IMG/VR virus record: IMGVR_UViG_3300025941_000018
Coordinates: 1-64,000 of that record
Reading direction: 5' to 3' (one strand)
Source of the DNA: a virus
DNA length: 64,000 nucleotides
Notes under the pieces: generated by a model
What the model saw: only the letters and a program-made list of their open reading frames with translations
What the model was told of the DNA's origin: nothing
The model's database searches: none
Part shown: positions 8,895 to 32,833 of the stretch, piece after piece
Layout of the letters: each line of letters opens with the position of its first letter
Position numbering within the stretch: position 1 is the stretch's first letter
Translations under genes and position numbers: made by a program

Positions 8895-9007
8895 CCTGTT
8901 CTACTCACTTACGACTGCCGCCAGGTGGTCGCGGGTGCTCCGCGCTTGTGGAGTCCACTACAGAACAGGTTTCGTACCCAAGTTGAGCAATCAGCTTGGG
9001 GATTTTT
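8895..9007 (+). ncRNA. Candidate small structured RNA with terminator
   Basis: A perfect 8-bp closing stem, CCTGTTCT (8895-8902) with AGAACAGG (8962-8969), encloses two hairpins. One is CGACTGCC/GGTGGTCG with a GCCA loop, the other is built on CTCC/GGAG and GTG/CAC. An intrinsic terminator follows 7 nt later. The shape is a three-way junction of about 75 nt, but no tRNA T-loop or anticodon arm is present. No known RNA family was recognised. Confidence 0.45.
8977..9007 (+). terminator. Intrinsic terminator
   Basis: A 10-bp stem, CCCAAGTTGA/TCAGCTTGGG (one G-T wobble), with a GCAA tetraloop, followed by GATTTTT. This is a textbook rho-independent terminator on the plus strand. It would end transcripts of the 7016-8821 operon just before the repeat at 9019. 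Confidence 0.8.
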
Positions 9008-9018
9008 CCTGTCGGCTT

Positions 9019-9327
9019 GAACCATTGCCGTTCAGCGGTGAGAAATGGACGCGAGGGTCGGCAATGGATTGCGGTACTCGGGAACTGATTACTACCGCAC
9101 ACGTGGGCGCGAATGGGCCAGAGCGTGATTCAGCAGCCTTATACCCAAGGTTGAATAGTCTAGCCCCACCGCTCAAGGTCAAATTTTCGAGCGGAGCCAA
9201 AAGCGAAGCGAAGCGACCGACGGGCTTTCGTCAGAGCAGAGGCAGTAGCGCGTCCCTTAGGGGGCGCTCTGCCTTTTGCTCGCTCTCTCCCTCTAAGCTT
9301 TCATCAGTACAGGGCAGGATCGGAGAA
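9019..9327 (+). repeat. Structured 309-bp repeat, copy A; candidate large RNA
   Basis: Matches 29501-29809 in the same orientation at an offset of 20482, with about five substitutions before the ragged end. Perfect inverted repeats: 9022-9030/9059-9067 (9 bp), 9070-9076/9093-9099 (7 bp), 9103-9107/9165-9169, 9128-9134/9150-9156, 9169-9174/9189-9194, and a long hairpin at 9235-9280 (AGCA, AGGCAG, AGCGC and CCC arms). Two differences between copies keep pairing (A-U to G-U, G-U to G-C). It lies between an intrinsic terminator and the RNase HI gene. The RNA strand and any function are inferred, and no known RNA class was recognised. Confidence 0.7.
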
Positions 9328-9824: not shown

Positions 9825-9848
9825 ATTTATGAAAACGAAAGGCATTTC

Positions 9849-10661
9849 CTGAAAATCGCAAACGTTACGTACCTGCCGCCTCCCCGCTACGGTTGCGCGA
9901 AAGTCTTCGTGGATAACCTGCGCCGTTACCCGAGCAAATACCCGATGGTCGCTTACTCTGAGCATGACTGGGACTGGCCGGGACTCATAAAGCTGAAGGC
10001 TGACCCAGAGGAAGTGAAAAGCAGAGCGCCGAAATTGCAAAACGGAGAGCCAAATCAATTTGCAATTAACAACGTTCTTTGGCTGGTCGGTTTGCGTTTC
10101 GCGCGCGAGATGGGTTACACGCATGTCCTTTATCTGGAAAGCGACTGTCGCGTCGGTGTTAAGCATTGGGATGAGAAGGTCTTTGACGAATACTTCTCGA
10201 TTGGCCGGCCGCTCATCGCTGGCGGAAATATCGCCTGCTATAACCCGTGCAACTCGACCGCCCTTGGTTCAAAACGATGGGAAGAACTTGTGACACAAAA
10301 CAACAAACGGCGAAATGTGCCAATACCCACGTATGGCTGGCTTCCGGCAGCGACCAAAGCGCCGTCCTGCGTGTTCGTGAATGGCGCTCTGGCTATATAT
10401 AGCATCGCGTGGATGGAACAGCTTTTTGAGCATCTTGAAGACTGTACACGTCAGGCGTATGCGCCTAGCCCATTTGATATGGGGTTAGGCGTCAAGCTAT
10501 GGGATATTTTTCAGGAGGATTCATATGAAGTGCTAGGCCACTTAACTAGCGTGTTCAGTGGATTCGGAGACATAATGACGACCGAGGAGGAGCGCTTAGA
10601 CATGGTCCGCTCGGGCGAATGTGTAGGTTGCCACCAGGTCAAATCAGACGCGACCGTATGA
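9849..10661 (+). CDS. Glycosyltransferase-like protein, probable CTG start
   Basis: A 270-residue protein. The frame has no ATG near its natural N-terminus. A CTG at 9849 with GAAAGG 7-8 nt upstream gives MKIANVTYLPPPRYG, the usual opening strand of GT-A glycosyltransferases. GTG at 9909 would remove it. LYLESDCRV carries the DxD-like motif (ESD). The C-terminus has FDMGLG and a CVGCH pair. Such enzymes move sugars from nucleotide-sugars to an acceptor, here unknown. It is the first member of the glycan cassette. Confidence 0.75.
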   Translation: MKIANVTYLPPPRYGCAKVFVDNLRRYPSKYPMVAYSEHDWDWPGLIKLKADPEEVKSRAPKLQNGEPNQFAINNVLWLVGLRFAREMGYTHVLYLESDCRVGVKHWDEKVFDEYFSIGRPLIAGGNIACYNPCNSTALGSKRWEELVTQNNKRRNVPIPTYGWLPAATKAPSCVFVNGALAIYSIAWMEQLFEHLEDCTRQAYAPSPFDMGLGVKLWDIFQEDSYEVLGHLTSVFSGFGDIMTTEEERLDMVRSGECVGCHQVKSDATV

Positions 10662-10750
10662 CCTTCTCCGACACAATGCAGATCACGAGCATCGTGGTTG
10701 CCTTCGCCGCCTCCGTGCGGCTGTTCTGGCGATGGTATTGGAGGCGCTAA
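10658..10750 (+). CDS. Tiny membrane peptide
   Basis: A 30-residue frame (starts MTFSDTMQITSIVVAF) with one hydrophobic segment and an Arg/Trp-rich end. It overlaps the glycosyltransferase stop by 4 bp (ATGA) and ends 2 bp before the next ATG. Coupling is the main evidence. It may be a membrane peptide or merely a translational link. Confidence 0.45.
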   Translation: MTFSDTMQITSIVVAFAASVRLFWRWYWRR

Positions 10751-10752
10751 CT

Positions 10753-11034
10753 ATGCCCGATTATCACATGACTAGAAAAGCTGAGCTTGCGATGGAAGCC
10801 AGCTTTCGGAACGACCGTGAGTCGCATGAACTTTTGGATTTGATAGACCGAGAATTTCGCACCGACCCAACCAGTGTCCAATGTTTCGACCGTCGTATCG
10901 TTGAGCGGGTGGCGCTGTGCGTGGCGCGAAGGAAGGCGTATCTAAAAGCGGTCGCGCACTTGGTCCTCGACGCGATGCGCAAAGACATGGCCAAGATGAG
11001 GACGGCAACTTTGAACACACCTACTGAACAATGA
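10753..11034 (+). CDS. Small helical phage protein
   Basis: A 93-residue protein started at the ATG at 10753, 2 bp after the preceding stop. It is mostly alpha-helical with many Arg/Glu/Asp residues and no recognised domain. The ATGA overlap with the next gene supports it. Confidence 0.65.
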   Translation: MPDYHMTRKAELAMEASFRNDRESHELLDLIDREFRTDPTSVQCFDRRIVERVALCVARRKAYLKAVAHLVLDAMRKDMAKMRTATLNTPTEQ

Positions 11035-11300
11035 GCGTAAAATATATCGAACCGAACCCTGATAACTTCAGCACACGCACCAAGCGGCATTTCTGGGCCA
11101 TCACCGAGCAGTGGACAGTCGTAGAAGTGGCTGGCTACTCTACTCAGCAGCCGACAATGTGGTGGGTGCCAAGCCTGGGATTCACTATGAGCATCGGTCA
11201 CCATCTATTTGACGGGGAACAGGACGCACGCCGACGGGCGCGCGCGGACCTTACGGCAAGGATTAGCGAGCTGCAACTTGCCCTCCTGAATCTCAAGTGA
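11031..11300 (+). CDS. Small phage protein, unknown
   Basis: An 89-residue protein. The N-terminal half is beta-rich (HFWAITEQWTVVEVAGY) and the C-terminus is a charged helix (DARRRARADLTARISEL). No family is recognised. It is coupled to both neighbours. Confidence 0.65.
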   Translation: MSVKYIEPNPDNFSTRTKRHFWAITEQWTVVEVAGYSTQQPTMWWVPSLGFTMSIGHHLFDGEQDARRRARADLTARISELQLALLNLK

Positions 11301-11699
11301 ATGCTGCCCACCGCGAAGCAACCATTAACACTATCCAATAACATGAAGACGAAAAGAAAGAAACGCAGATGGACAAAAGCCGACGAAATGAAGGCGGAGA
11401 TAGACACGCTCAAAGCCGAATTGACAATCGTGCGTAGGCGCTACAAAGAGACCTGCGAGCAAGAGTCGGCAGAGCGCAGCAGAGTCTATAGCCTTACTGA
11501 GAAGTACAGTCTGATCAAGCGGGTCATGGGAGATTTACTTCTACAATCTCATCGGTGCGCGACTTACAAACCTTTAGAAAAGTTGGCTGAGACACCCCGG
11601 ATGCGAATCGCCGTTATCGGCACGTCTGGATTGGTTTGCGTCTGGATTGACGACCGGCCAGTGTCAGAAATGAAAGCCGACGACGCCCAGGAACTGTGA
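11301..11699 (+). CDS. Coiled-coil protein, unknown
   Basis: A 132-residue protein. After a lysine/arginine-rich start (KTKRKKRRWTK) comes a long heptad-containing helix (residues about 25-75) and a short beta-rich end. The ATG at 11301 directly abuts the previous stop. ATG at 11343 is an alternative and begins at the basic stretch. It is a possible nucleic-acid-binding coiled coil, which is inference. It overlaps the integrase start. Confidence 0.6.
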   Translation: MLPTAKQPLTLSNNMKTKRKKRRWTKADEMKAEIDTLKAELTIVRRRYKETCEQESAERSRVYSLTEKYSLIKRVMGDLLLQSHRCATYKPLEKLAETPRMRIAVIGTSGLVCVWIDDRPVSEMKADDAQEL

Positions 11700-12619
11700 A
11701 ATTCGACGCCGCATTCGACAAGTGGCTTGCCGCCAACGACGCCGGGATGTCGGAGGGCTCGCGCTCTGCCTACACGTTCGCTGTCCGCAGGTTCGCCGCG
11801 TTCTGCAAAGCGCATCGCCTGCAGGTCGAAGACGTTCACAAACGGCACATCGCGGCTTACATGGCTGAGGCGACTGACGAGATCAAGGGCTGGACCGTTA
11901 TGGGCCAGGTGAAGCTTTTGAAACGGGTTTTCGAGTGGGCAGTGGCTGAAGGTCTGGCAGAGACAAACCCCGTCCAATTGAAGTCGCTGCCCAAGCTAGT
12001 CCGCCATCGAGCCGATCGCACGGCCTTCACCGCCGATGATTACGCGGCCATCATGGAGCACGTCGGCGCGGCTAAGCCCTACTGGCGGCTTGCCTGTGCG
12101 CTTGCCTGGCACACCGGGCTACGCATGGTGGACGTGGCAAATTTGCAGTGGGAGCATGTGGACTTTTCGGTGCGCGTGCTGAGCGTCAAGCCAATTAAAC
12201 TTCAGCGCTTCGGACAGCAGCTCGAAATTCCAATGGCCGACGAACTGTATGAGGCGCTCATCCAACGGCACACTGAGAGCACGACCGAGGAACCGGGCGA
12301 GTACGTCCAGCCCGACATGATGATGGCCTACAAATACGGCCGCACTCGGTTAGTTGAGCAGTTCGAACAACTGCGGAAGCGCGCGGGTTTGAGCGGCGGC
12401 AGCTTTCACTCGTTCCGGCACGCAGTGGCCACGAGGCTAATAAATGCAGGCGCTGATTCCTTGGTTGTCGCCTCAATTACAGGGCATAGCCTGAAGCAAC
12501 TGAAGGAATACACTCACGTTTCAATGGAAGCCAAAAGGAACGCCTTCAGCATAGCGCAAAAAGTATTGACCCCGCCTTTCAGAAATGAGAATCTTCGCAC
12601 GGCCCTAGAACGGCTGTAA
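11696..12619 (+). CDS. int: Tyrosine site-specific recombinase (integrase)
   Basis: A 307-residue protein starting at GTG in a GTGA overlap. The N-terminal SAM-like arm-binding domain (residues 1-95) and the catalytic domain carry the full active-site set: Arg143 (HTGLRMVD), Lys165 or Lys168, His238-x-x-Arg241 (HSFRH), His264 (GHS) and nucleophile Tyr272 (KEYTHV). It catalyses integration and excision, or resolution of genome multimers. I found no clear attachment-site core next to it, no excisionase and no recognised repressor, so lysogeny is likely but unproven. Confidence 0.93.
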   Translation: MKFDAAFDKWLAANDAGMSEGSRSAYTFAVRRFAAFCKAHRLQVEDVHKRHIAAYMAEATDEIKGWTVMGQVKLLKRVFEWAVAEGLAETNPVQLKSLPKLVRHRADRTAFTADDYAAIMEHVGAAKPYWRLACALAWHTGLRMVDVANLQWEHVDFSVRVLSVKPIKLQRFGQQLEIPMADELYEALIQRHTESTTEEPGEYVQPDMMMAYKYGRTRLVEQFEQLRKRAGLSGGSFHSFRHAVATRLINAGADSLVVASITGHSLKQLKEYTHVSMEAKRNAFSIAQKVLTPPFRNENLRTALERL

Positions 12620-12712
12620 AAACAGATGCGAATAAGATTCTCCATCTCCCTTCACGGTTGCCGCCAAGTCTGTGCGGGTTCTACTTCACGGTCGGGGGAT
12701 GGCTTTTCTGTT

Positions 12713-13450
12713 ATGTCAAACGCAAAACACGCACGGAAGTACTATTGGAGCCATCGGGAGGAGGTCCTGAGGCGGGCTGTAGAGTATCGCAAGAATAACT
12801 TGGAGAAATTTCGCCTCCGACATGCAGCAAACCACCTGAAGCACAAAGCTAAAAATAACGCCTATTCCGCGAGGTACTTAGCTGAGCATCGCGAAGCGAT
12901 TAACGCCCGTAAACGCAGGTATTACGCGTCGAACAAAGAGAGAATATTACGAGCGAGAGCAGAGGAGAGGATTAATAACTTGGATGCTTTTCGCGCACAC
13001 GGCAGGGCGAAATACTGGAAAAACCCGGAAAAAGGCAGGATAGCGTGTGCCGCCTACGCCAAGAAGTATCCAGAAAAATGTGTCGCTAGGGTTGCAAAAC
13101 GTCGGGCTCGCATGGCCGCCGTAAGAACGTCAGAGGACGCGGCAACACTAATCTTTCGCTTAAAAAATCAGGCAAAAAAGATCCGATGCCACTGGTGTGG
13201 ACGCCGATTAACTTCCTCCACTCTGGAAATCGACCATATCATTCCAATTTCCAAAGGCGGGGCTCACGAGGCTGACAACTTGTGCGCAAGTTGCAAATCG
13301 TGCAACACTAGCAAGGGAGACAGGGCTTTGAAGGACTGGCACAAAAAAGGCCAGCAAATACTCCCATTAGAGCCCTCTGGTTCAACCGCCATGGGCAACA
13401 CAATTTCGCCAGTTCCAGTTGGAAACGCACAAGGCAACCAATGTTTCTAA
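12713..13450 (+). CDS. HNH homing-type endonuclease 1
   Basis: A 245-residue protein from the ATG at 12713 (an in-frame ATG at 12626 would add 29 residues). The first 150 residues are several loosely repeated, very basic helical units with KYY/RYY and NxER motifs, probably DNA-contacting. The C-terminus is a zinc HNH nuclease: CHWCG, LEIDHIIPISKGG, DNLCASCKSCNTSKG. It is paralogous to the gene at 13846. The location, interrupting coupled small genes, fits a mobile homing gene. Confidence 0.9.
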   Translation: MSNAKHARKYYWSHREEVLRRAVEYRKNNLEKFRLRHAANHLKHKAKNNAYSARYLAEHREAINARKRRYYASNKERILRARAEERINNLDAFRAHGRAKYWKNPEKGRIACAAYAKKYPEKCVARVAKRRARMAAVRTSEDAATLIFRLKNQAKKIRCHWCGRRLTSSTLEIDHIIPISKGGAHEADNLCASCKSCNTSKGDRALKDWHKKGQQILPLEPSGSTAMGNTISPVPVGNAQGNQCF

Positions 13451-13508
13451 TTTCACGGGCTGCTTTGTCGCTGCTCGCCGGTTGGCGGGCGCTGGCGATT
13501 CCGAATTT

Positions 13509-13817
13509 ATGAGTTTGAAATATCACGGCAGATTTGGCGACGGATTGCTCTATACGCTTGGGGAGACTCGAATAATTCTATCCGGCCCAAAGGAACGTGA
13601 AGCGATTGGCTGGCATTTCAGCATTTCATGCCCCGACAGGAACCCAACTTGGGAGGAACAGAAAAAAGCCAGATACGAACTTTGCCCGGACGACCTCTAC
13701 ATGGTCCAGATCATGCCGCCCAAGAAAGAGTACGTGGCCGTTCACGAATTCACATTTCATTGGCATGAGGCTGGACCTAAGTTTTTCGACGTTAAAACCG
13801 GAAGGCCATTAGGGTGA
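13509..13817 (+). CDS. DUF7694-like phage protein
   Basis: A 102-residue protein started at the ATG at 13509. The core GWHFSISCPDRNPTWEE, ARYELCPDDLYMVQIMPPKKEYVAVHEFTFHWHE matches a conserved phage domain (DUF7694) with the pattern HxSISHPxRxPTWxE...LPP...YVNxHE. The function is unknown. It is sandwiched between the two paralogous HNH genes. Confidence 0.75.
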   Translation: MSLKYHGRFGDGLLYTLGETRIILSGPKEREAIGWHFSISCPDRNPTWEEQKKARYELCPDDLYMVQIMPPKKEYVAVHEFTFHWHEAGPKFFDVKTGRPLG

Positions 13818-13845
13818 AACCACCACACCACCCAGAAGCAGGATT

Positions 13846-14718
13846 ATGAAAATGCTTCTTGACCTTTCGGCACTCCCTTGGCAGCATCGTCTCGCTTTGC
13901 AGGACTCCGAGACATCTAAGGATTTGTCGCCCTCTCCGGGGGAATCTTCGCTTGTCGAGGCGTCCGCAAAGCACCCGGAGGGCGGCGATATTAAGCGTCA
14001 AATCCATTTGCGGAAGAAAGCGGCGCGGATGCGGGCCTGGAGGTTGAGAAACCCTGAAGTAATGAAGGCAAGAAACCGCAAGTGGTACGCTGAAAATAAG
14101 GAGTGCATTTCAAACAAGGCGCGACTGAGATATGCGGCAAACCCATCTGTTAAAATATCGAACAACAGGGACTACTATCGACGCAATCGAGAAAAAGTTA
14201 ACGCTTACAACAAAAGGCTTGTCGAAAGAATCAAGCGAGAGCAGCCCGAGCGCTACGCCGCGTGGCTGCGCAAGACATACGAAAACGCCAAGCCAGGCTT
14301 AGTGGAGTATAGACGCCGTCCAGAAATTAAGGCACGCCACCGCGTTGAGAGCAGGCGGTGGGAAGCGGCAAATCCAGAAAAGCGGAGAGCAATGAATCGC
14401 TCTTGGGTTGAAAGAAACAAAGAAAAAGTAGCCGCAGATCGCAAAGCTCGAAAGGCGCTACCAGAGGACAGGCCAGGGGTTGATGAATTTCTTCGAAAAG
14501 TTTTTAGCAGGCGATTTATAAAATGCTACTATTGCCAACGAAGGACCAGCACGAAGGCGGTTCACGTTGACCATATTGTGCCGAGAAGCAAGGGAGGAAA
14601 AACAAAAGCCGATAACCTTTGTGCCGCCTGTCCAGACTGTAACCTTTCCAAGCACGCAGCGCTAATTCCAGATTGGCAGAAACGCCGCGACCACTCGCAG
14701 CAAATCTTGCACTTATGA
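13846..14718 (+). CDS. HNH homing-type endonuclease 2
   Basis: A 290-residue protein. A non-conserved 50-residue leader is followed by a basic helical repeat region like that of the gene at 12713, then an HNH core: CYYCQRR, VHVDHIVPRSKGG, DNLCAACPDCNLSKH. Both CxxC pairs and the DH motif are present, so it should be active. It overlaps the next glycosyltransferase start by 4 bp. Confidence 0.9.
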   Translation: MKMLLDLSALPWQHRLALQDSETSKDLSPSPGESSLVEASAKHPEGGDIKRQIHLRKKAARMRAWRLRNPEVMKARNRKWYAENKECISNKARLRYAANPSVKISNNRDYYRRNREKVNAYNKRLVERIKREQPERYAAWLRKTYENAKPGLVEYRRRPEIKARHRVESRRWEAANPEKRRAMNRSWVERNKEKVAADRKARKALPEDRPGVDEFLRKVFSRRFIKCYYCQRRTSTKAVHVDHIVPRSKGGKTKADNLCAACPDCNLSKHAALIPDWQKRRDHSQQILHL

Positions 14719-15365
14719 AAATATTTTCCTTCTATGGCGATGTCCCGGAACTGCCACGCGGAGACGAATTACGTTTAACTATCTTATGGCGCGAGAAATG
14801 GAAATCTGCCGGCTGGGAGCCGGTCATTTTGTCTGAGTGGCAAGCCCGACAGCATCCACACTTTGAAGAATACGATGCGGCAATTTCAAAGTTGCCGTCG
14901 TGCAATCCGCCAATTTATGAAAAATTCTGCTTCTATAGATGGATCGCTCTCGCCCAAGTTGGCGGTGGCTGGCTTGCCGATTATGATCTTTTTGCGACAC
15001 CCAACGGAAACCCACTTTGGCACCGACTAACCGGTGCAGAGATGAACAAAGTCATCATCATGCAGCAACCATGCTGCCCATGCCTTGTGTGGTGTAGCGC
15101 CGACAACGCGATTCGTCTCTGTCGTGAGTTTGCGAAAGGCATCGGCAATAATCCCCAGGACGCACGCGCTCATTTTTCTGATCAGTATTCCCTTGAACGT
15201 CTGGTGCTCGACGGTGCCGACTGGATCGAAGTGCGCAACGTGGTGAAGCAGTATCCAGATGAAGGCTGCAAGGATGCTCCTTTAATCCACTACCCTAATG
15301 CCGCCCTTGGACCTCGAAACCTCACCCCGAAATGGCGCCACATTCCGAAGCTCCTACCACTATGA
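14715..15365 (+). CDS. Glycosyltransferase with DxD motif
   Basis: A 216-residue protein started at MKIFSFYGD. It resembles the Gly_transf_sug type (capsular or mannosyl-type GT-A): WREKWKSAGWEPVIL, then YEKFCFYRWIALAQVGGGWLADYDLF, where ADYDLF is the metal- and nucleotide-sugar-binding DxD. The protein is at the short end for the family. ATGA couplings hold it to both neighbours. It probably transfers a sugar to a phage or host glycan; the acceptor is unknown. Confidence 0.85.
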   Translation: MKIFSFYGDVPELPRGDELRLTILWREKWKSAGWEPVILSEWQARQHPHFEEYDAAISKLPSCNPPIYEKFCFYRWIALAQVGGGWLADYDLFATPNGNPLWHRLTGAEMNKVIIMQQPCCPCLVWCSADNAIRLCREFAKGIGNNPQDARAHFSDQYSLERLVLDGADWIEVRNVVKQYPDEGCKDAPLIHYPNAALGPRNLTPKWRHIPKLLPL

Positions 15366-15607
15366 AGTTCAACAAACACGACAACGTCAGCCCGGCGGCC
15401 CGAGCGCATCAGGCAAAGCGCAAAGCCGAATTTCACGCCGTCCACAAACACATCGGCACCAAGAACGCGCTTTACTGGAACATGCGCGTGCGCGGCTGGT
15501 GGACCAAAGCTGTCCTGAAGGCGCGAGGTCCTGCTGTCCCGACATCGCTTCGAGAGGCGGCTGAGTTTGCCCTGGCGCAGGCGCTTGAACAGCGGAGGGC
15601 GCGATGA
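15362..15607 (+). CDS. Small basic phage protein
   Basis: An 81-residue protein started at MKFNKHDNVSP. It is strongly basic and helical (RAHQAKRKAEFHAVHKH), with no recognised domain. It is coupled between two glycosyltransferase-like genes. Confidence 0.65.
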   Translation: MKFNKHDNVSPAARAHQAKRKAEFHAVHKHIGTKNALYWNMRVRGWWTKAVLKARGPAVPTSLREAAEFALAQALEQRRAR

Positions 15608-16290
15608 GCGCGATGAGCGACGATCTTCTCGTTGTGCTGGCGCACTCGAAGGCCAGCGACGCGCTGGCAAGGCACTGGCCATGGCTCCTGAAAGGTGAGT
15701 GCGACATCCTTGGGGTTGGCCGCGAGGACACGACCACCATTTGGCCGGCTGAAAAGGGGCAGGACAATTTCATCGGCGAGATAAGGGTGGGTGCGGAATC
15801 CTACGCCAGCGGCCAAAATCACATAACACGCTACCTAGATGTGCTGCGGTGGTGCACGGATCACGTCGCGCATCAGCGATTTTGTGTCATTGAATATGAC
15901 TGCCTGATTTTCAAACCACTTTCCTTAGTTGCGTTCAAACCAGGATTGCTTACAACCTGCGCCGGCGGTCGCAGTGAAGGCTTTCGCGGCTCGCTGTTCT
16001 TCCATACGCCATGGTGGTGCGACCGAACGACAGCTTGCGACATAATGCGTTACGGCGGACGAATGCTTCGTGCGGGTCTCGACGAGCGGGGCTTTCTGGA
16101 TCGCTGGCTGGGACTTCTCGCCGACCTTTACGATCTTCGGGTGCAAGACTTCGTGGATTTCTGGTACACGCAAAACACCATCGACACGCCAGAGAAAATT
16201 GCCGAGGCCCGCAGAGCCATCATCGCTGGGGCATGGGGTTTGCATGGCTGTAAGACCGCCGCGCAATTGGAGGCCATCACCCGTGGTTGA
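15604..16290 (+). CDS. Glycosyltransferase-like protein
   Basis: A 228-residue protein. The layout (LVVLAHSKASDALARHWPW, later RYLDVLRWC...FCVIEYDCLIF, then GFRGSLFFHTPWW) is that of a GT-A-like domain with the DxD-equivalent EYDC at about residue 100. I recall similar uncharacterised phage and environmental proteins but no exact family. It overlaps the next gene by 8 bp at GTG 16283. Confidence 0.65.
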   Translation: MSAMSDDLLVVLAHSKASDALARHWPWLLKGECDILGVGREDTTTIWPAEKGQDNFIGEIRVGAESYASGQNHITRYLDVLRWCTDHVAHQRFCVIEYDCLIFKPLSLVAFKPGLLTTCAGGRSEGFRGSLFFHTPWWCDRTTACDIMRYGGRMLRAGLDERGFLDRWLGLLADLYDLRVQDFVDFWYTQNTIDTPEKIAEARRAIIAGAWGLHGCKTAAQLEAITRG

Positions 16291-16480
16291 ACCTTTGCCA
16301 TGCCCAATCTGCGGAAAGCCGCCGCGCACACGCAACCCATTCGGCACCCATTTGTTCGAGGTCCTGTGCGACGACGGGCATAAAGAATGGTGCTGCTTCT
16401 CCATCCTCACGATGGAAGACGCGATTGAGCTTTGGAATAGTGAGTGCGAAATTGCTACTCAGGAAAGAAAGCTATTATGA
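16283..16480 (+). CDS. Lar-like restriction-alleviation zinc protein
   Basis: A 65-residue protein from GTG 16283. The order LPCPICGKPP, a VLCDDGH block and TMEDAIELWNSE matches the Lar/DUF zinc-ribbon family (CPFCG ... AxxxWNxR), which in prophage Rac modulates type I restriction. The second metal pair is weak here (one Cys plus His, then Cys-Cys). Anti-restriction is inferred by family only. Confidence 0.7.
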   Translation: MVEPLPCPICGKPPRTRNPFGTHLFEVLCDDGHKEWCCFSILTMEDAIELWNSECEIATQERKLL

Positions 16481-17112
16481 ACTTAGACGAAATGAGCTTG
16501 GATCAGATCGGCCTTGTCCATGGCACAGATCAGGCTTCTAGCCACCATGGATTTTTGTCCCACATGGAATCTTTCCTTGAACCTATGCGCGAGACTGCTT
16601 CGAAGGTAGTCGAAATAGGTGTGGCGGGAGCGGCTGGGACGCGCACGCTTCGAGACTATTTTTCTAACGCTCATATTTTCGGCATCGATCACAATCCAGA
16701 GAGCTGCAAATTCGACTTAGGACCACGGGTTACACTCATCCATGGCGATGCGAGCCACGAGGAATTCTGGAAGCAATTTGAGAATGAAAACGGAGGCAAC
16801 CTAGATTTGATAAGCGACGACGCGAGCCATAATGTCTGGGCAACCTGGGTGGCATTTCACCAAGGCTGGAAGTTGTTGAAGCCCTCGGGCCTCTTTCTGA
16901 TCCAAGATATTCACGCGGGCTGGGACCCGGCTTATCGCCGCGACAATGAGCCAAATGGCCTACCTAAATACATGACCGTTCACGATTGGATCTGCGATCT
17001 AGCCATCACGCGCTTGCACGAAGGCGGAGCGAACCAATGTGGCAAACCCACAACGGCAGACTTCGAGTCCATTTACCTATCCAAAAGCCTGGCCGTCATA
17101 AAGAAACGCTGA
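16477..17112 (+). CDS. SAM-dependent O-methyltransferase, TylF/rhamnosyl type
   Basis: A 211-residue protein starting at MNLDEMSLDQIG. Features: HGTDQASSHHGF near the N-terminus, SAM-binding motif I VVEIGVAGAAGTR (residues 45-56), acidic IFGIDHN and LISDDASH (112-118), and a later FLIQDIHAGW. This combination is typical of macrocin/TylF and rhamnosyl O-methyltransferases that methylate sugar hydroxyls. With the adjacent glycosyltransferases it suggests a modified sugar is made. Confidence 0.85.
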   Translation: MNLDEMSLDQIGLVHGTDQASSHHGFLSHMESFLEPMRETASKVVEIGVAGAAGTRTLRDYFSNAHIFGIDHNPESCKFDLGPRVTLIHGDASHEEFWKQFENENGGNLDLISDDASHNVWATWVAFHQGWKLLKPSGLFLIQDIHAGWDPAYRRDNEPNGLPKYMTVHDWICDLAITRLHEGGANQCGKPTTADFESIYLSKSLAVIKKR

Positions 17113-17115
17113 CCT

Positions 17116-17364
17116 ATGATAGACGCCGATGACGAATTTCGATACGCGCAACTCGATATCCTTGAGGTCGTGCAGCGCAAACTAGCAATCATCAATGCCC
17201 AGCGGAACGAAATCATGGAAGCCTTTATAGCCAAGCATGGCTTCGACGCGGACGAGGCAGTCCAAGTCGTTCAGCGGATGCGTGATGGAAGCGAGAAGTT
17301 CTTTATTCGCAAGCGCACGCCAGAGGAAATGGAAATGCTCAATAGGCTTAGTTCAGAATTATGA
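17116..17364 (+). CDS. Small coiled-coil protein
   Basis: An 82-residue, highly charged helical protein beginning 3 bp after the methyltransferase stop and overlapping the next start. Heptads (LEVVQRKLAIINAQRNEI) suggest a coiled coil. No family is recognised. Confidence 0.65.
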   Translation: MIDADDEFRYAQLDILEVVQRKLAIINAQRNEIMEAFIAKHGFDADEAVQVVQRMRDGSEKFFIRKRTPEEMEMLNRLSSEL

Positions 17365-18146
17365 AGAAACTTTTGGTCAGCTATTCAAACTGTCAAGGGT
17401 CGGGTGCCCTGTTCTTCCTCAAGCGCACGCACCTTGCCGAGGAATACGAGATGCGGCAATGGAACAACTGGCAGTGCATGCTCGATGAGGTAGATCCGCA
17501 GGCGATGCTAAAGGACGCCACCCAGGCGGATGTGTTTCTCTATCAGCCAACCGACCGCTTCGAGAGTCGGGCGGGCTTCAACGTGCCGAGTACGGACGAA
17601 ATAAAGAGCCTGCTAGTTCCAGACGGATGCCAGTGCATTTCGTTTGCCTACGCATACAACGATGGCTTCTTCCCCCTCCTCAAGCACGGCGACTGGAAAA
17701 CCGGCAATCGCGCTAAAGAACTCGCCGCCATCAGCCCCTACCGTCTCTTCGCTGCCTACAACGCTGATCTGACCTACGACTGCGCGCGTCGGTTCGTGGA
17801 ATGTTTGAGCGAGATGTCCAAGCGCGAACAACTCTGCGACATCAAAATGGTCCCGTTCATCCTGAACACCTACCGCGATACTCGGCTCTTCCTAAACGAG
17901 AACCATCCATCATCATTCATGTTCTGCCACCTGGCGCAGCAAATTTACATTCAGATCAAATCCGAGAGTCCCGACGTGACGAAGATGCTGACTGCCGACG
18001 AGAACGAAGTGAACCTGCCGATGGGCATTAACCCAACGCATCAGTCAGTGGTCAACGAACTGGGCCTGCGCTATCTCGCCGACGAACGCGCCCACGAGTT
18101 TTACCGCAACTGGTTTGAACAGTATTTGAAGGAGATGAAGCCATGA
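17361..18146 (+). CDS. WcbI-like polysaccharide acyltransferase
   Basis: A 261-residue protein. The opening LLVSYSNCQGSGALFFL matches the GNCQG motif of WcbI (a GDSL/SGNH-like enzyme of capsule biosynthesis), followed by DVFLYQPTDRF (the DxxIxQP block), GINPTHQSVVNELGL and a C-terminal helix. WcbI proteins are thought to acetylate capsular sugars. It ends the glycan cassette begun at 9849. Confidence 0.8.
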   Translation: MKKLLVSYSNCQGSGALFFLKRTHLAEEYEMRQWNNWQCMLDEVDPQAMLKDATQADVFLYQPTDRFESRAGFNVPSTDEIKSLLVPDGCQCISFAYAYNDGFFPLLKHGDWKTGNRAKELAAISPYRLFAAYNADLTYDCARRFVECLSEMSKREQLCDIKMVPFILNTYRDTRLFLNENHPSSFMFCHLAQQIYIQIKSESPDVTKMLTADENEVNLPMGINPTHQSVVNELGLRYLADERAHEFYRNWFEQYLKEMKP

Positions 18147-19337: not shown

Positions 19338-19648
19338 TACAACTCCAAAACGACACCAAGATCCGCTTCGTAAACGCCGTCGATGCGCTGCTTACCCATG
19401 CCCGCGAGTGTGAAGCTTGCACCGAATACATGCAGACCGGAGAGGGCGACCTTTGCGACTGGGCCAAAATCAGCCTTGCTCACGAGATGGCTTTCGCCGA
19501 CATGAAGCCGATCATCGACGAGAACTTCGTCTTACTCCCCGACGCGGCGACAGGCCCCTGCCCGCCCGCATCGTTGTCAGAGAGCGTCCTACCATCCGCG
19601 GTGACAACCCTCGCCGAGAACCCACACGGGCACCTCGACTACGAGTAA
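19334..19648 (+). CDS. Small protein with Cys pair, overlaps giant gene
   Basis: A 104-residue protein. The first 70 residues look like a real domain (ALLTHARECEACTEYMQTG, then a helix), with a CxxC pair. The last 45 are low-complexity and antisense to the 3' end of the giant minus-strand gene (137 bp overlap, 19512-19648). It is the last gene of the plus-strand module, meeting the virion module tail to tail. Confidence 0.6.
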   Translation: MIQLQNDTKIRFVNAVDALLTHARECEACTEYMQTGEGDLCDWAKISLAHEMAFADMKPIIDENFVLLPDAATGPCPPASLSESVLPSAVTTLAENPHGHLDYE

Positions 19649-22600
19649 GGCCGCCGCCTAGTCCGCCGCCCAAGGTTGTCCCGCGTGATGCTGTGGCCAG
19701 CCTGGGAGTGCCTGAAGCCCCGCCAGGCCCACCCACAGCCGGTGCCACAGCCGCACGGCTTGCCGCAGGCGCTCCGCCGCCGCCTATAGATGCCACACTA
19801 ACCCCAACCGACTCCAAAGCGTCTTGATTCGCCCGCTGGAACGCTTTAGCGACGGCGACCTTGTCACTGCCATCCAATCCTTGAAGTTCCTGCTTGAAAT
19901 TCACCCCTCGCTGCACCGTGTAATCTTGTAACTCCTGATTCGTCATCGGCCTGAAATCGTTGCCGATGGCGTAGCCCTTATTTGGATTGATGGACGGTGG
20001 TCGATAGCCGCTTTCAAACACTGCCACGTAGGGTGCCTCTTCCAGTTGCGCTTTCACCGGCAGGGGATACGTGCCTGACAGCATCGTCTGGACGTAGTTC
20101 TGAACGGCATCAGGAGTGCCCACAGGGTCGCCCATGAAGTTGACTGCCTTGTGCCCGCTGGTTGGAAGCGCGACCAGGAAGTCCATGAATGTCGCCTGTC
20201 GAGGATCGAGATGCACGCCGACCGCCCGCATCTGTTCTTGCCAGCCAGGGAGCCCGGGGACCACGGGGCTGATATACGACGCCGCGAGCTTGGTCGGACT
20301 GAAGCTGCCTGCCTCCGTGAACGACTGCGCGGCACCGGTCAGGGTCTTGCCGGACATCAGCAGAGCCAGCGCCGATTCGGCCGCAACTTGGAAGCGCTCC
20401 ATGGTAGTAGGAGGCGGGATTTTGCCAGGGGTAAGACCCTTCTTCTCTGCCTCTTGGTTCATGGCGGTCTGCTGCTGTGTGCGCCGCTCAATCAAATCCT
20501 TTGCTGCCTGCGCGCCGCCGGCATAGGGAGCCAGGAAAGTGCCGACGCCAACCGTCGTGCTCAGTCGGTAAACATGGTTGTCGCCCAGGTTGATCTCGAT
20601 GGTTCCCCATTTGTGGCCTGCCTTCTCAGCCAAGTCACGTTCAGCACGATCCATCGGTGGCCGGCCAAAATATTTCATCAGGTTGTTGAACACGGCCCAA
20701 ACTGCGATTGCGCCAAAAGCGGTGCCAAGCAAGGCTTGAAAACGGCGCTGCCAAACGTCCTCCTCGGTGGTGAAATAAGGCGACGGTTCAGCCCCGCGTG
20801 GCCGCATGTTAGCCATCGCGTACAGCGGCGTGTTCATAAACGCCCAGTTGATGCCGGTGCCGATGGCATTCGAGAACTGGGTAAAGAACCCCGGCAGCCC
20901 GGCGCCGCGCAACATGCTTTGCGCGTACTTCAGCGGCACGGTAACCAGCGCGCCCGGGCCAGTCTTCACCGGTTCCTGCCATGCGGACAGCCGTTTGAGC
21001 AGGTCGGCGCGCTTCTGGAACTCATCGGCGGGCAAATGGGCCATCCGAATCTCGTCATACATGCGGCTGAGAACGAGCGCCGATGCCCGCTCGACCAGTT
21101 CAGCCTCAGTCAGCGTCTCGCCAGCGGCTGCCGCTATCCTGCGAGCATCGGCCAGGGCGGCATCTCGCTTCGCCGGCAGTCCCTTGAACACCCTGTCGCG
21201 AATCACTAATCGGTCAGCCAGCAGAAAGCCCTTCTGGATGAGGCTCGAATCGACAAGGTTGGACATTTCAGTCATCTCGACCGCCGTACCCTGCCAGGCA
21301 TCCATGGCGCGGATGAAGTGCAAAGACCACTTCACGAGTCCCAGGAAGCGCAGTGCCCCGGCCTGAGCAGTCTTGCCTTGGGCATCCAATTCCTTAGCCT
21401 TGAGTTCCATCCGCTCGAAAGCCTGAACTCCGGACATCAAACGCTCGACGTTTCGGGTCTCGCCGCGATTGAGCAATCCTGCCCTGAACGCCAGCAGCCC
21501 TGGCTTAATGGCATCCACGGTCTCTTTGAACCCTTGGACCATCGTGCGCCCGAGGTCTCCCCATGCCTGCCCGATGGACTCTTCGCCGCGCTCCACCCTT
21601 GCTGCCACGAATCCCGCAGCCCGACTCGGAACGTGCATCAAGAACTGTGTTGCCATGTGGAGTGGTAGCCGGAAGCCGAACCCGGTCTTGAGCAGCAGAT
21701 TGGCAATCTCGAACTCGTTGGTCGCCGCAGCGATGTTCTGCCGTGTAGCCCAGAACTTCGACCATTTGATGGGCTGCGTGAGCCGTGCCCAGCGTGCCGC
21801 TAATTCCCGGTTGGCTGCCCCGATCTTCCCTTCCATGGTCACCATGCGCTCACGGCGGGCCTTCTCGACGTCGCCACCAGCGTCTTTGATTTCTTCCGGG
21901 GTAGGTTCGGCCAGCCGCTGGGCTCGCTCGCTCAACTCCCGCATGATGCGGATCTCCGCTGGGCTGGGTGGCGTGTAGCCGTTGGCCTTCGCAATCTCGG
22001 CGATGATGGTCGTCGGATCGGCACCACCAGCATTGAACATTCGATGCAGTTTCTCGACCACATTGCGCCTGCGCATCTGTTTGCGCTCCTGTGGCGTCAG
22101 AGCGTCGATAGCCTGCTTTCCAGCCGCTGCCAGCGCTTTGGTCATCGGGAGCTTAAACGCCGCCTGGAACATCGCCTTGACCTTGTCCACCTGCGCTGGG
22201 TCGATGCTCAGATCGCGGACCATGTGGTCGGCAAACCTCTCAGCCAGCTCGTCCTGGCGGTAAAACGGGGTTTCCAGCACTTGCTTGGTCAAACTGCTGA
22301 CATTTGGCACCAACCGCTGAACCACGCCCTTAGCCGCCACATTGTCAATCATGGGCGTGTCGATGCCACCGGCGCGGATGATGCCTTCCAGCTTGCCTTT
22401 GGCCTCATCAAGCCGCTTGGCGCGCGCCTCCGGGGTGATCGGCGCCACGTCGAAGGTGCGATCTGCACCCTTCAGGAAGCTTCGGGTAATCCGTTCTTCC
22501 GCTGCCTGCAGCCGTTCGGCCAGGTAGGTCCAGGTCACGGCTTCCAGATACGTGCGGGTTGGCTCATCTAAGGCGTTGAACTTCTCGGCCGTAGCGATTT

Positions 22601-25600
22601 CCTCACTCTTGCGCTCAATCCATTGCTGCTTTTCAGCCCTTGTCGAGGTTGCCAGGCTTTCCAATTCCTTAGCCGACACGTATTTCGAATCGACGCTGCG
22701 AATCAGACGGCGCGTTCGGTCGGTCTGGAAGCGTGGGTCTCGCGACACCCCGGCGTTAATCAGCCCGCGCAGACGCTCGGATGCCGTCTTAGGCACGTTC
22801 GCCTTCGGGTCGAAGAAATTATCCACGACTCGCTGCTGGGCTTTCTTCAATTGGGCGAGCATCTGCTGCTCGATGGCGTTGTAAACCCGAAGCTTGGTCT
22901 CCGGAGATGCAGCGGACATATCCACCACAGCCTCGATATTATCCATGAAAGCACCCATCACGCGGGCTTTCTCTTCATCCTCGGACTTCGCCAGCTTCAC
23001 CAAGTCAATGCGGGTGTCAGCGGGCTTGACCTTGGGGTCCTCGAACTTCGTGCCTTTGAAATGTTCACTAAGCACCTGCCGCACGAGCCGCATGGTTGTC
23101 GGGTTGTAGCCAAGGTCTTCGCCAATCTTCTCCCAGTGCGCGTACTTCGGCAGCTTCATACCTTCGTCGATGAACTGCTGTGGCGGCATCACACGCTCAT
23201 TGCCTGGTCCTGCCAGGTCGATTTCCGTCAGCATGTCCTCAAGGGCGGCCTTGCGCTCCGGGTCTTTCTCGCTGGTCGCGTACTTCTTCAGGATGACACG
23301 GCCCGCATTCCACTGCGCTTCTTCCAACGCCCATTCGAGGGATTGCCCAATCGCATCAGCGGTCTTCGGATCGAGCATCAAATGGAGTTCTTCCATCGCC
23401 GTCAACTTGGTCTTGCCTGGACGCGGCTTTGGCTCAATGCCGTATTTGGCTTTCAGCCGCTCGAGTACCTTGTCGTAAGCCTCATTCTCTTTGCTCTTGA
23501 GCGCGAGTTGTTCTGGGGTCAATGGTTGCTTGGGTGCCAATGCTCGCTGCAAGCGTCGGTACAACCTGCCGCCTTGGTCCTGAGCACTCAGCCGAATCAG
23601 TGTATTGATGAATGTCCTCGCGTCGGGATGGCCATTAAGCGCGTCCTCGATCTCTTTGGGCGTGAACAGATCGCGGAAATGGGTCAGCGCCCGCTCAATC
23701 ACTTTGCGGATGCCGTCGCCATTGAATGCCTGCGAAAACTCTTTGTGCAGATACACGTCCACGTTGCGGCCAATCACGTCCAGCCCGGGCTTGAGGCGGG
23801 AGAGGGCCGACAGCGCGGCGCCCACGCTGCTAATCTCGCCCTGAGCCACGGCAAATAAATCATCGCGCAGTCCGGTCGGTAGTGTTGCCATCGCTGAGCC
23901 CGGCACGTTGCTGTAGTTTAGGCGCACGGAATTGAGCAGGTGCATCAGCAACCCATTAGCCTTCCCGGGTTCATTCTGCGCTCGAATCTCAGCCTTCATC
24001 CGTTCCAGCAGCTTCTCGAATTGCTCCCGTTGATCCTCGCCACTGGCGTCAAACCGATAGACTTCCTTCTCCATCTTGCCCGTCTCGGGGTCCATGACGG
24101 CAGTATCGGTGAACGGGATCTTAAGCGAGTCCAGCACGGTCTTGCTGAAATCCTTCATTGTGGCGATCTGCGCAGCGGTCTGTCGGCTGAGCACGCCGAA
24201 GTCCGTGCCCATGACCTTCGTCTCCGTGTATGGGCTTGGCGGCTCTTCTTCGCTCGGGCCGAGAGACGCCATCAATCGCTCGTGCTCAAACTGATTGCCG
24301 CTCTCCGGTGTGGTATCAAATCGCCCAGCCATCACCGCATCGAGCACATCGTTCTGCCGCGGCCGCATTCGCAGGGCTTTGCGAAGTGCCGACAGGAATT
24401 GCTGCCAAATCGCTTTGACCCTGGCCCAGAAGCCCTCGACGACAGAGCCAGCCTTTTGCTCAAACCTGTCGCTGAACGAGTGCGCGAAATATTCTTCGTC
24501 GTTCGAATGGTGATATAGCAGCTTCTCGTAACGCTTCGGATAGTTGCGGGACAAGAAGTCCTTGGTGTCCACCGTCGGATTGTCGCGCAGGTCAGTTAGC
24601 GCAGCGGTCAGTTCGGCGTTGCCCTCATTCTCTTTCAGTAAGACCTCAATGCTCGCCAACTTGAGCCTGTTTATCTCTGCCCGAATGTCTTCTGGAAGGA
24701 CGTTCTGGTAAAGCCAGTGCGCAAATTCATGTGGCAGAGTCTTCGGGTCGGCGGTTCGACCGAACTGAATCAGATTTTGAAGTGTACTTCCAGCGTATCC
24801 GTTCTCCACTGCGTCAGTGATGACAACTCGAACACCTTCGAAATCTTTCGCAACGGGCAAATCCAGCAGCGCATTCGCCAGCCTGACAACTTGCGGAGAT
24901 AACCCCGCGTCCTTGGCGTTGATCGCCGTGCGCAACTCTTCGACGGTGCGGGCTTCGACGGGCTGACGCTCGCGCAACGGCGAAGTCAACTCTTCCGTCG
25001 GAGTGCTGGCCATTGCGCCAGGTTCGCGCATCGCAGGCGTGATGGCGATAGCGTGAACCGGAGTCGTTATCGGCACTCCGATTTGCTGCATGGCTTTTTC
25101 AGCATCAGCCCTGCTCGAAAACTGCGAGGACAGTTGCTCTCGCACCCCGTCGGGGGTTCTTCCGTAAACAACCCAAAATCCTTGGAACGAACCCGGCTCA
25201 ACTTTGAGGTCGGTCATCCCTTCTCCTTCGCGCTCGCCAACCGAAATGCCCTGCGTTCCAACCTTCACCCCCGCCTTCTTCACCGGAGCCAGATTGTTGA
25301 CGACGTTGGGTAGGTCTTGGTCGTAGAGTTTTTTGAGGCCAGCGCCACCGACTCTAAGATCCAGACCGGTGAAGTCCTGTTGCTCTCTGCCGTCTCTGGC
25401 AGCGGCAGCGGCCTTCTCGCCAAGTTCTTTGCCGATGTAATCGGACAGTTTGTCTGCGGAAATTCCAGAGGCAATCTCATACCAGTTGCCCTCGGTTTCG
25501 TGACCCACGCGCCTGACGGAAACGTCCACTTTCTTTCCGTCGCCTGAAATATTCTCGACGCGGATAGCCGACACATGCTTGCTGAGATCATATCGTTCCG

Positions 25601-29454: not shown

Positions 29455-29495
29455 ACCGAGGCGGATTAAACCCCGTCCTCGGTCATTTTCTTTTT
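29455..29495 (+). terminator. Terminator-like hairpin before repeat copy B
   Basis: ACCGAGG-CGG paired with CCG-CCTCGGT (10 bp, one bulge), then CATTTTCTTTTT on the plus strand. It is a convincing intrinsic terminator shape although no plus-strand gene is known upstream. It ends 6 bp before the repeat, mirroring the terminator before copy A. Confidence 0.6.
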
Positions 29496-29500
29496 CGCCC

Positions 29501-29809
29501 GAACCGTTGCCGTTCAGCGGTGAGAAATGGACGCGAGGGTCGGCAATGGATTGCGGTACTCGGGAACTGATTACTACCGCACACGTGGGCGCGAATGGGC
29601 CAGAGCGTGATTCAGCAGCCTTATACCCAAGGCTGAATAGTCTAGCCCCACCGCTCAAGGTCAAATTTTCGAGCGGAGCCAAAAGCGAAGCGAAGCGACC
29701 GACGGGCTTTCGTAAGAGCAGAGGCAGTAGCGCGTCCCTTAGGGGGCGCTCTGCCTTTTGCTCGCTCTCTCCCTCAAGGCTTTCATCAGTACAAGGCGGG
29801 GATCAGGGA
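29501..29809 (+). repeat. Structured 309-bp repeat, copy B; candidate large RNA
   Basis: The second copy of the 9019-9327 element in the same orientation. Differences from copy A: A to G at 29506 (keeps the 9-bp stem through a G-U pair), T to C at 29633 (turns G-U into G-C and completes ATTCAGC/GCTGAAT), C to A near 29714 (would weaken a short 4-bp stem), and two adjacent changes near 29776-29779. After about 29809 the copies diverge. Here it lies antisense to the surrounding virion operon. Confidence 0.7.
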
Positions 29810-31146: not shown

Positions 31147-31593
31147 TTAATCCTTCTTCATGATGTTTGCAAGTGTGGATTCGTGTTGCACCGTCCAGTT
31201 GATCTCGCGCAAAAGAGGGCTGAGTTCGCGCACAAGCTCAAACCCGCCGCAAATCGACGCCACCGCCAGCACCATCTCCGAACCAGCGAAGCGCAGGGTA
31301 TCTGACCATTGCCGCTTCCAATCACACTTCTCTCCCTCCCACTTAACGCTATCGGCGTAGGCACTGGTGATCGTGGCAACCACCAGTTCTAATTCTCGGG
31401 CGTGTCGATTATAGAAGTTTGCTGAGTATAAAACATTGGCATGAATCAGAAGCTTGATCCAAATCTCAGTCGATTGGACTCGATTGTCGATAAGATCATC
31501 AATCTCGTGGCAATAGTCACCCCACAATCCCAGCCAGTCGCGTGCTTCTGGATTTCCTGCCGCGGCTCGTTCGTGAAGTTCAGGCAAGGTCAC
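31147..31593 (-). CDS. Tandem paralogue 2, helical protein
   Basis: A 148-residue protein clearly related to the next gene: both share L-x-x-WG-x-Y, a DD/DxxxD helix, NxxYSxxFYxRH-like, DSV(R/K)WE, WKRQWxDxLR and a conserved AVAxICGG block. Helical throughout. No known family is recognised. A duplicated pair may form a heteromer or have diverged in function. Confidence 0.7.
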   Translation of the reverse strand: MTLPELHERAAAGNPEARDWLGLWGDYCHEIDDLIDNRVQSTEIWIKLLIHANVLYSANFYNRHARELELVVATITSAYADSVKWEGEKCDWKRQWSDTLRFAGSEMVLAVASICGGFELVRELSPLLREINWTVQHESTLANIMKKD

Positions 31594-32060
31594 GAAACGA
31601 GTTTCCTTTCCGGGGTTCCTGGCACGCCATGTTTATCAGCGTGGTAAACGTAACACATTGCCATCAACGGAGCGCTAATCCGGCGCATGCCCTCCCATCC
31701 GCCACAAATCATAGCCACTGCCAATATCACCTCGTTTCCAGAGTGCCGCAGCACATCGGCCCATTGCCGCTTCCAGGGTTCTGGCTCCTTTTCCCAACGA
31801 ACGCTATCGGTCCACAAGTTCGTTGCGATCAAAACCGGCATTTGTAACTTGGCTACGTGCCGCACGTAAAACGGGTGCGAATAGAATTGGCACGCCATCA
31901 TTAACACACGCAAAATATTTTCAGGTTCCCATTTCTGCTCATCACAAACATCATCCACTGCCCGAAGGTAGCACCCCCAGAGCCGCAAGAAATCTTCCGC
32001 GCCAGCCACGCCATTGGCAATTATTCCGTTCAGTTCCTGAATCGCGCTTGGCTCTTTCAT
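31590..32060 (-). CDS. Tandem paralogue 1, helical protein
   Basis: A 156-residue protein started at the ATG at 32060, which overlaps the upstream stop (ATGA). It is paralogous to the gene at 31147 (shared WKRQWADVLRHSGNEVILAV and ICGGWEGMRR). It is 4-bp coupled to that gene, so the two are made together, probably in equal amounts. The function is unknown. Confidence 0.7.
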   Translation of the reverse strand: MKEPSAIQELNGIIANGVAGAEDFLRLWGCYLRAVDDVCDEQKWEPENILRVLMMACQFYSHPFYVRHVAKLQMPVLIATNLWTDSVRWEKEPEPWKRQWADVLRHSGNEVILAVAMICGGWEGMRRISAPLMAMCYVYHADKHGVPGTPERKLVS

Positions 32061-32833
32061 GCCGCGTTGGCCCGATAAAATTGCTCCTGCACCTTCCATG
32101 CGCCTTTGAGTAGTTGTGGATTTTCAAACACCGCGAAATGATTCTCGCGCCAGTGGGTTTCGGGATAATGCGGACACACTAGGTCGGAGATGGTCCCGAA
32201 ATTCAGATGGTCGTAAGCATCCAGGATGTCAGTCGTGAAAGGTTCTCCTCCAATCGCGTGGTACAGCAGCGAACATGTGTCGTAGAAATAATTGGTTTGC
32301 GGCATGGCCTTGCCGAATAGTTCCGGTGGGCCAACTGGATGAAACATTGGATAAAATAGGTTCGGCCTGGGATTGAATTGTGTTTCGGGAAACTGGCTGA
32401 AATATTTGGCTGTTTCCTCTTTAATCCGCTGCGGGTTCAGCCATAGTAGCGAAGTGTGCAGGCGGGGTCGCGTAATGCATTTGGTGAAGCTATCTCGAAA
32501 CTGAGGAATGTAGCGTCCTGCCATAGGCACGGCGTCAAATTTGCAGTGCTCCACCTTATCCCAGAATACTACATCTGTATCGCATATCCAAAATGGAGCG
32601 TGCTCAATGTGCAGCAGATGCTCAATCCATTCATGGTGGATCGTCACGCCTTTTGGCAGTGGATTAAGTTCCGCCCCCGCTAGAAGTTTCGAGTCTCCCA
32701 CGGCGAACTTTTGAATGTTGTCCCATGGAACAATCTCCGCTGATGGAAAACCGATGCGGATTGTGTCAAAAACCATCGTGCTAGCGCGGACTAACTCCAG
32801 GTTGCGCAGGGTAACTAGAACATGAACATTCAT
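32057..32833 (-). CDS. Glycosyltransferase-like protein in virion operon
   Basis: A 258-residue protein. The opening MNVHVLVTLRNLELVRAS is a GT-A Rossmann-type strand-helix. At about residue 85 HAPFWICDTDVVFWD carries the DxD motif (CDTD), typical of glycosyltransferases. Unlike the cassette at 9-18 kb it sits among virion genes, so its acceptor may be a structural protein (inference). Confidence 0.7.
   Translation of the reverse strand: MNVHVLVTLRNLELVRASTMVFDTIRIGFPSAEIVPWDNIQKFAVGDSKLLAGAELNPLPKGVTIHHEWIEHLLHIEHAPFWICDTDVVFWDKVEHCKFDAVPMAGRYIPQFRDSFTKCITRPRLHTSLLWLNPQRIKEETAKYFSQFPETQFNPRPNLFYPMFHPVGPPELFGKAMPQTNYFYDTCSLLYHAIGGEPFTTDILDAYDHLNFGTISDLVCPHYPETHWRENHFAVFENPQLLKGAWKVQEQFYRANAA

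What the first reader, a model, noticed from the sequence alone, without database searches (positions are those of the whole stretch)
9849..18146. Glycan-modification cassette in a phage
Three glycosyltransferase-like proteins with acidic DxD-type motifs (ESD, DYD, EYD), a TylF/rhamnosyl-type O-methyltransferase and a WcbI-like acyltransferase lie in one ATGA-coupled operon. A fourth glycosyltransferase-like gene (32057) is inside the virion operon next to structural genes. Together with Ig-like proteins at 39084 this suggests glycosylation of the virion or of the host surface, which is inference.
Basis: partly seen in the sequence, partly recalled or inferred. Interest (0 to 1): 0.6.

Follow-up and report, generated by a model that had tools for sequence, protein, structure and literature searches.

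The report
Sugar-building gene cassette in a phage
An uncultured bacterial virus carries three or four sugar-attaching enzymes plus a methyl-adding and an acyl-adding enzyme, and its relatives keep the core while swapping the finishing enzymes, so it probably decorates its own particle (or its host's surface) with a custom sugar chain.

Summary
GT1 (9849-10661), GT2 (14715-15365) and GT3 (15604-16290) match no Pfam, PHROG or NCBIfam family, but motif scans show that they are conserved phage families: five other phage records carry GT1 and three hold GT1, GT2 and GT3 together. Genes after GT3 differ by phage: a MycE-like O-methyltransferase and a WcbI-type acyltransferase here; FkbM methyltransferase, extra GT-like or GT9-like genes elsewhere. 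The GT2 model has a GT-A fold; its nearest solved structures include the chlorovirus PBCV-1 capsid-glycosylating enzyme. GT4 (32057-32833) is syntenic inside the virion operon of a relative. In a second phage lineage the GT2 homologue lies between the portal-position and capsid-position genes in 34 of 34 loci. The set is not one contiguous operon: integrase, two HNH genes and small ORFs separate GT1 from GT2. No TET, thymidylate-synthase, GtrA, epimerase or NTP-transferase family match was found in this circular genome. Best reading: soluble enzymes build an O-methylated, probably acylated oligosaccharide, most likely on virion proteins; host-surface modification remains open. New variant of a known kind.

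The parts
9849..10661 (+). GT1, GT-A-like glycosyltransferase (270 aa, CTG start, ExD motif E97/D99, C-terminal H262-Q-x-K265)
   Evidence: family alignment of 6; low-confidence model whose best PDB matches are all GT-A enzymes
11696..12619 (+). tyrosine integrase/recombinase lying inside the cassette, also near GT1 in G020, G021, G022 and G024
   Evidence: PF00589 1.5e-23; synteny
12626..13450 (+). HNH endonuclease, probable insertion between integrase and GT2
   Evidence: PF01844 6.3e-13; absent between integrase and GT2 of G021
13846..14718 (+). second HNH endonuclease, stop overlaps the GT2 start (ATGA)
   Evidence: PF14279 1.8e-12; overlap
14715..15365 (+). GT2, GT-A-fold glycosyltransferase (216 aa, GGGW-x-x-DYD)
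   Evidence: 46 viral loci; 24-sequence alignment; model pTM 0.80; PDB matches all glycosyltransferases at E<=1e-3
15604..16290 (+). GT3, putative glycosyltransferase (228 aa, EYD motif, C-terminal HGxK)
   Evidence: alignment of 4; E97, D99, H214, G215, K217 invariant; always directly after GT2 in G019, G021, G024
16283..16480 (+). small zinc-ribbon-like ORF between GT3 and the methyltransferase
   Evidence: weak PF13248; overlaps both neighbours
16477..17112 (+). MycE/TylE-like sugar O-methyltransferase (211 aa)
   Evidence: PF13578 1.4e-5, phrog_21658 4.6e-20, MycE 3ssm 2.2e-7 with DDxSH aligned
17361..18146 (+). WcbI-type polysaccharide acyltransferase-like enzyme (261 aa)
   Evidence: PF18588 1.5e-12; 4bqn 6e-4, SxCQ and NHP blocks aligned
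32057..32833 (-). GT4, putative glycosyltransferase (258 aa, FWICDTDVVFW) inside the virion operon
   Evidence: 10 viral relatives, 9 aligned; syntenic with 31147, 31590, 33180, 34019, 35260 in G024

Best explanation
This is a phage-borne glycan-assembly cassette. Shown by sequence: a conserved core of small soluble GT-A-type glycosyltransferases (GT1, GT2, GT3, with GT4 in the virion operon) and exchangeable tailoring enzymes (here a MycE-like O-methyltransferase and a WcbI-type acyltransferase). Inferred: one of the GTs primes a virion protein, the others extend it to an oligosaccharide of about three or four sugars using host nucleotide-sugars, and the outer sugars are O-methylated and acylated. 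The decorated capsid or tail protein would alter adsorption or shield the particle, and swapping of tailoring genes diversifies the outer end of the glycan.
For: GT1-GT2-GT3 kept together in G019, G021 and G024; GT2 fold is GT-A with PBCV-1 A064R among the best matches; methyltransferase and WcbI assigned; tailoring genes differ among relatives; GT4 syntenic in the virion operon; GT2 homologue between portal-position and capsid-position genes in 34 of 34 loci, 18 after removing near-duplicates, downstream of TerS and TerL; no membrane segment in any cassette enzyme.
Against: In this phage the main cassette is on the strand opposite to the virion operon and lies around an integrase gene, a place typical of host-modifying genes. 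No acceptor is known. Portal and capsid of the second lineage are assigned by position only and are not related by profile to those of the window. GT3 and GT4 folds were not modelled and the GT1 model is poor.
Confidence: 0.5

Rival explanations
1. Host-surface modification (lysogenic conversion): the enzymes act in the host cytoplasm on lipid-linked O-antigen or capsule units, changing the receptor and blocking superinfection.
For: Integrase lies inside the cassette here and near GT1 in G020, G021, G022 and G024; WcbI and sugar O-methyltransferases are typical of surface-polysaccharide loci.
Against: No GtrA match in G000, G024, G019 or G021 and no membrane-spanning enzyme; no prophage relative found in 84,980 bacterial and archaeal genomes with GT1 or portal profiles; does not explain GT4 in the virion operon or GT2 homologues in head modules.
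Confidence: 0.28
2. DNA hypermodification: the glycosyltransferases glycosylate modified bases of the phage genome against restriction.
For: Phage glycosyltransferases with this role are known (discussed in PMC12619734).
Against: No TET/JBP or thymidylate-synthase-type match in this circular genome or five relatives (the TET control did not reach its cut-off in any control genome, so that test is the weaker one); WcbI and a MycE-like enzyme point to sugar hydroxyls.
Confidence: 0.06
3. The genes are not one pathway: independently acquired cargo genes that happen to be neighbours, each with its own role.
For: HNH genes and small unknown ORFs are interspersed; G020 and G022 have GT1 without GT3 or full-length GT2; GT4 relatives lie beside a DnaB homologue in other phages.
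Against: GT1-GT2-GT3 order is kept in three diverged phages, and GT and methyltransferase genes recur together in several lineages.
Confidence: 0.16

Closest known systems
Chlorovirus PBCV-1 A064R/A061L capsid N-glycan enzymes (PMC9614988)
   Same: Virus-encoded GT-A glycosyltransferase, a further GT and sugar O-methyltransferases finishing a glycan; the GT2 model matches A064R domain 1
   Different: Separate genes instead of one three-domain protein; tailed phage of a bacterium; no demonstrated glycan; WcbI-type enzyme added
Virion glycosylation of mycobacteriophages (Che8, Rita; cited in PMC11256854)
   Same: Phage-encoded glycosyltransferases proposed to modify capsid proteins; methyltransferase relatives in mycobacteriophages, in McProf directly after a glycosyltransferase
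   Different: Different GT families with no tblastn match in INPHARED; variable tailoring set; target unproven
gtr/oac serotype-conversion genes of temperate phages
   Same: Sugar transfer and acylation genes beside an integrase
   Different: No GtrA match and no membrane-spanning enzyme; at least three soluble GTs
Burkholderia WcbI capsule enzyme (4bqn)
   Same: Same Pfam family; SxCQ and NHP blocks aligned
   Different: Phage-borne and not in a bacterial capsule locus; distant in sequence (E 6e-4)

Membership tests
GT-A-fold glycosyltransferases | GT-A (nucleotide-diphospho-sugar transferase) fold | tested here: met
   GT2 model pTM 0.80; all 17 PDB matches at E<=1e-3 are glycosyltransferases. 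GT1 only suggestive; GT3 and GT4 not modelled
GT-A-fold glycosyltransferases | Conserved DxD-type metal-binding motif | tested here: met
   Invariant or nearly invariant in each family
GT-A-fold glycosyltransferases | Transfer of a sugar from a nucleotide-sugar | not testable with these tools
   needs an enzyme assay
WcbI (PF18588) | Match above the family's curated cut-off | tested here: met
   48.0 bits against 29.2
MycE/TylE-type sugar O-methyltransferase | Sequence similarity to the characterised enzymes including the DDxSH stretch | tested here: met
   3ssm 2.2e-7, 8ia9 3.1e-4
Phage virion glycosylation | Glycosyltransferase genes linked to virion genes | tested here: inconclusive
   Met for GT4 and for GT2 homologues of another lineage; not met for the main cassette, which is on the opposite strand beside the integrase
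Phage virion glycosylation | Glycan covalently on capsid or tail protein | not testable with these tools
   needs mass spectrometry
gtr serotype-conversion cluster | GtrA flippase and membrane-embedded specific glucosyltransferase | tested here: not met
   No PF04138 match in G000, G024, G019, G021 (control rang in 13 of 14 genomes); maximum hydropathy below 1.6 in all cassette enzymes
Phage DNA-hypermodification cluster | Enzyme making a hydroxymethyl base (TET/JBP or thymidylate-synthase homologue) | tested here: not met
   None in six genomes; the thymidylate-synthase control rang in 9 of 14 genomes, the TET control reached its cut-off in none

The most novel reading that the evidence does not exclude
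Several uncultured phage lineages coat their virions with a multi-sugar, methylated and acylated or sulfated glycan built by a conserved core of unnamed GT-A families and an often-exchanged set of capping enzymes: a capsule-like, diversifying glycan coat on bacteriophages.
Probability: 0.3. Interest if true: 0.72.

Novelty: new variant of a known kind. Interest (0 to 1): 0.45.

Why it matters
It defines four conserved phage glycosyltransferase families that the libraries searched do not recognise, a WcbI-type enzyme with no match in 50,697 phage records, and a core-plus-exchangeable-caps architecture. If the target is the virion, glycan coats would be more widespread in environmental phages than the few mycobacteriophage cases suggest, and the enzymes can be tested in vitro.

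Tried and rejected
Direct tblastn of GT1-GT4 and WcbI against INPHARED found nothing. Profile comparison among the GT families gave no significant link, so they are reported as separate families. The capsid- and portal-position proteins of the second lineage could not be tied to those of the window by profile. GT1 and portal profiles found no relative in 84,980 bacterial and archaeal genomes, so the host stays unknown. DNA hypermodification and gtr-type conversion were tested and disfavoured. The Ig-like protein was considered as glycan acceptor, but nothing links it to the cassette.

Full report
WHAT IS THERE. The window is bases 1-64000 of a 75,295-base virus record. Its two ends overlap by 137 bases at 99% and a nearly identical contig (G001) runs across that junction, so the genome is circular and apparently complete. 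The region of the finding holds GT1 9849-10661, small ORFs, a tyrosine integrase 11696-12619, HNH genes 12626-13450 and 13846-14718, GT2 14715-15365, an ORF 15362-15607, GT3 15604-16290, a zinc-ribbon-like ORF 16283-16480, a methyltransferase 16477-17112, an ORF 17116-17364 and WcbI 17361-18146. From HNH2 to WcbI nearly every junction is a 4-nt ATGA overlap; GT1 stands apart. GT1 needs a CTG start at 9849 to include the N-terminus that its relatives share.

ARE THE GTs REAL. Degenerate-codon scans around the acidic motifs found homologous families: GT2 with 46 loci, many of them near-duplicates; GT1 in five further phage records plus one fragment; GT4 with 10 loci; and GT3 directly after GT2 in three phages. 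In alignments the acidic motifs are invariant or nearly so, and GT1 and GT3 share an invariant C-terminal H-(Q/G)-x-K; in several GT-A families such a C-terminal His is a metal ligand (own knowledge). The GT2 model (pLDDT 79, pTM 0.80) matches only glycosyltransferases among the 17 PDB chains at E<=1e-3: LARGE1, the PBCV-1 enzyme described as involved in glycosylation of the major capsid, Och1, LgtC and others, and many annotated viral glycosyltransferases. The GT1 model is poor (pLDDT 53), yet its best matches are all GT-A enzymes at weak E-values.

TAILORING ENZYMES. The methyltransferase is closest to MycE and demethylmacrocin O-methyltransferase and keeps DDxSH. Its relatives in annotated phages are in mycobacteriophages and one Microcystis phage; in McProf it directly follows a glycosyltransferase. 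WcbI scores well above the Pfam cut-off and aligns the SxCQ and NHP blocks of the solved enzyme. No phage record in INPHARED has a detectable relative of it.

RELATIVES. G024 (capsid-position protein 64%, portal 58%, terminase 55% identical over the matched parts) carries GT1, integrase, GT2, GT3 and GT4; after GT3 it has an FkbM methyltransferase (PF05050 4.8e-13) and another GT-like gene in place of the MycE-like enzyme and WcbI. G019 and G021 carry GT1-GT2-GT3 followed by another GT-like protein, a GT9-like protein and a methyltransferase-like protein (the ones without a Pfam match are named by inspection). G021 also has an epimerase (PF01370 1.8e-67). G020 and G022 show GT1 and integrase but no GT3 or full-length GT2. 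So the core is conserved and the finishing enzymes are exchanged.

TARGET. Two facts favour the virion. GT4 sits in the virion operon here and in G024 with the same neighbours. In an unrelated aquatic lineage the GT2 homologue always lies between the portal-position and capsid-position genes (34 of 34 loci, 18 after removing near-duplicates), in a module that starts with TerS (phrog_51) and TerL (phrog_2) and continues into virion structural genes; beside it are GT9-like, GT-A-like and methyltransferase genes, or a gene with an FGE-sulfatase domain. In L049 the GT2 homologue is followed by a nucleotide-sugar transferase (PF03407) and a sulfotransferase (PF03567). Against: the main cassette here surrounds an integrase, a usual place of lysogenic-conversion genes (own knowledge). 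However, no GtrA, no membrane segment, no TET or thymidylate-synthase homologue and no NTP-transferase or epimerase was found in this genome, so donor sugars probably come from the host.

LITERATURE. Chlorovirus PBCV-1 finishes its capsid glycan with A064R (two GT domains and an O-methyltransferase) and A061L (PMC9614988). Mycobacteriophages Che8 and Rita are reported to carry glycans on the major capsid protein (as cited in PMC11256854), and phage glycosyltransferases are reported to act on virions, DNA or host serotype (PMC12619734). The primary papers of the last two points are not held here. A search for phage and WcbI gave only three papers, none on such an enzyme by title or abstract.

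VERDICT. It is a new variant of a known kind, virus-encoded glycan modification; the virion as target is favoured (about 0.5) but unproven, and host-surface modification (about 0.28) is the main rival.

Noticed in passing
window 9004-9303 and 29486-29785: A 300-bp direct repeat (96% identical, 11 differences) without a convincing gene, flanking the GT cassette and the giant gene. It has strong predicted hairpins (minus-strand fold z -2.2), no Rfam match, and no copy in the relatives compared. The contig G001 ends exactly inside it.
   Followed up: partly
window 19512-29243 (-): A 3243-residue gene, the longest of the phage, with relatives of parts of it in G019, G020, G022 and G024; function not examined.
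   Followed up: no
window 9849: GT1 seems to start at a CTG that overlaps the stop of an 8-codon mini-ORF (9829-9852), possibly translational coupling.
   Followed up: partly
window 31147-32099 (-): Two small proteins (148 and 169 aa) downstream of GT4 look like paralogues of each other; both are conserved beside GT4 in L106/G024 and in L107.
   Followed up: no
L064:7840-8823: A phage gene with an FGE-sulfatase domain (PF03781 1.5e-23) sits between the GT2 homologue and the capsid-position gene; collagen-like G-A-T repeat proteins follow in the same operon.
   Followed up: no
L098, L099, L103, L105: GT4 relatives in other phages lie beside a DnaB helicase homologue instead of virion genes, so GT4 occurs in more than one context.
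   Followed up: no
G021:C1:15643-16338: A relative with the cassette also encodes an NAD-dependent epimerase (PF01370 1.8e-67), a possible nucleotide-sugar gene.
   Followed up: no
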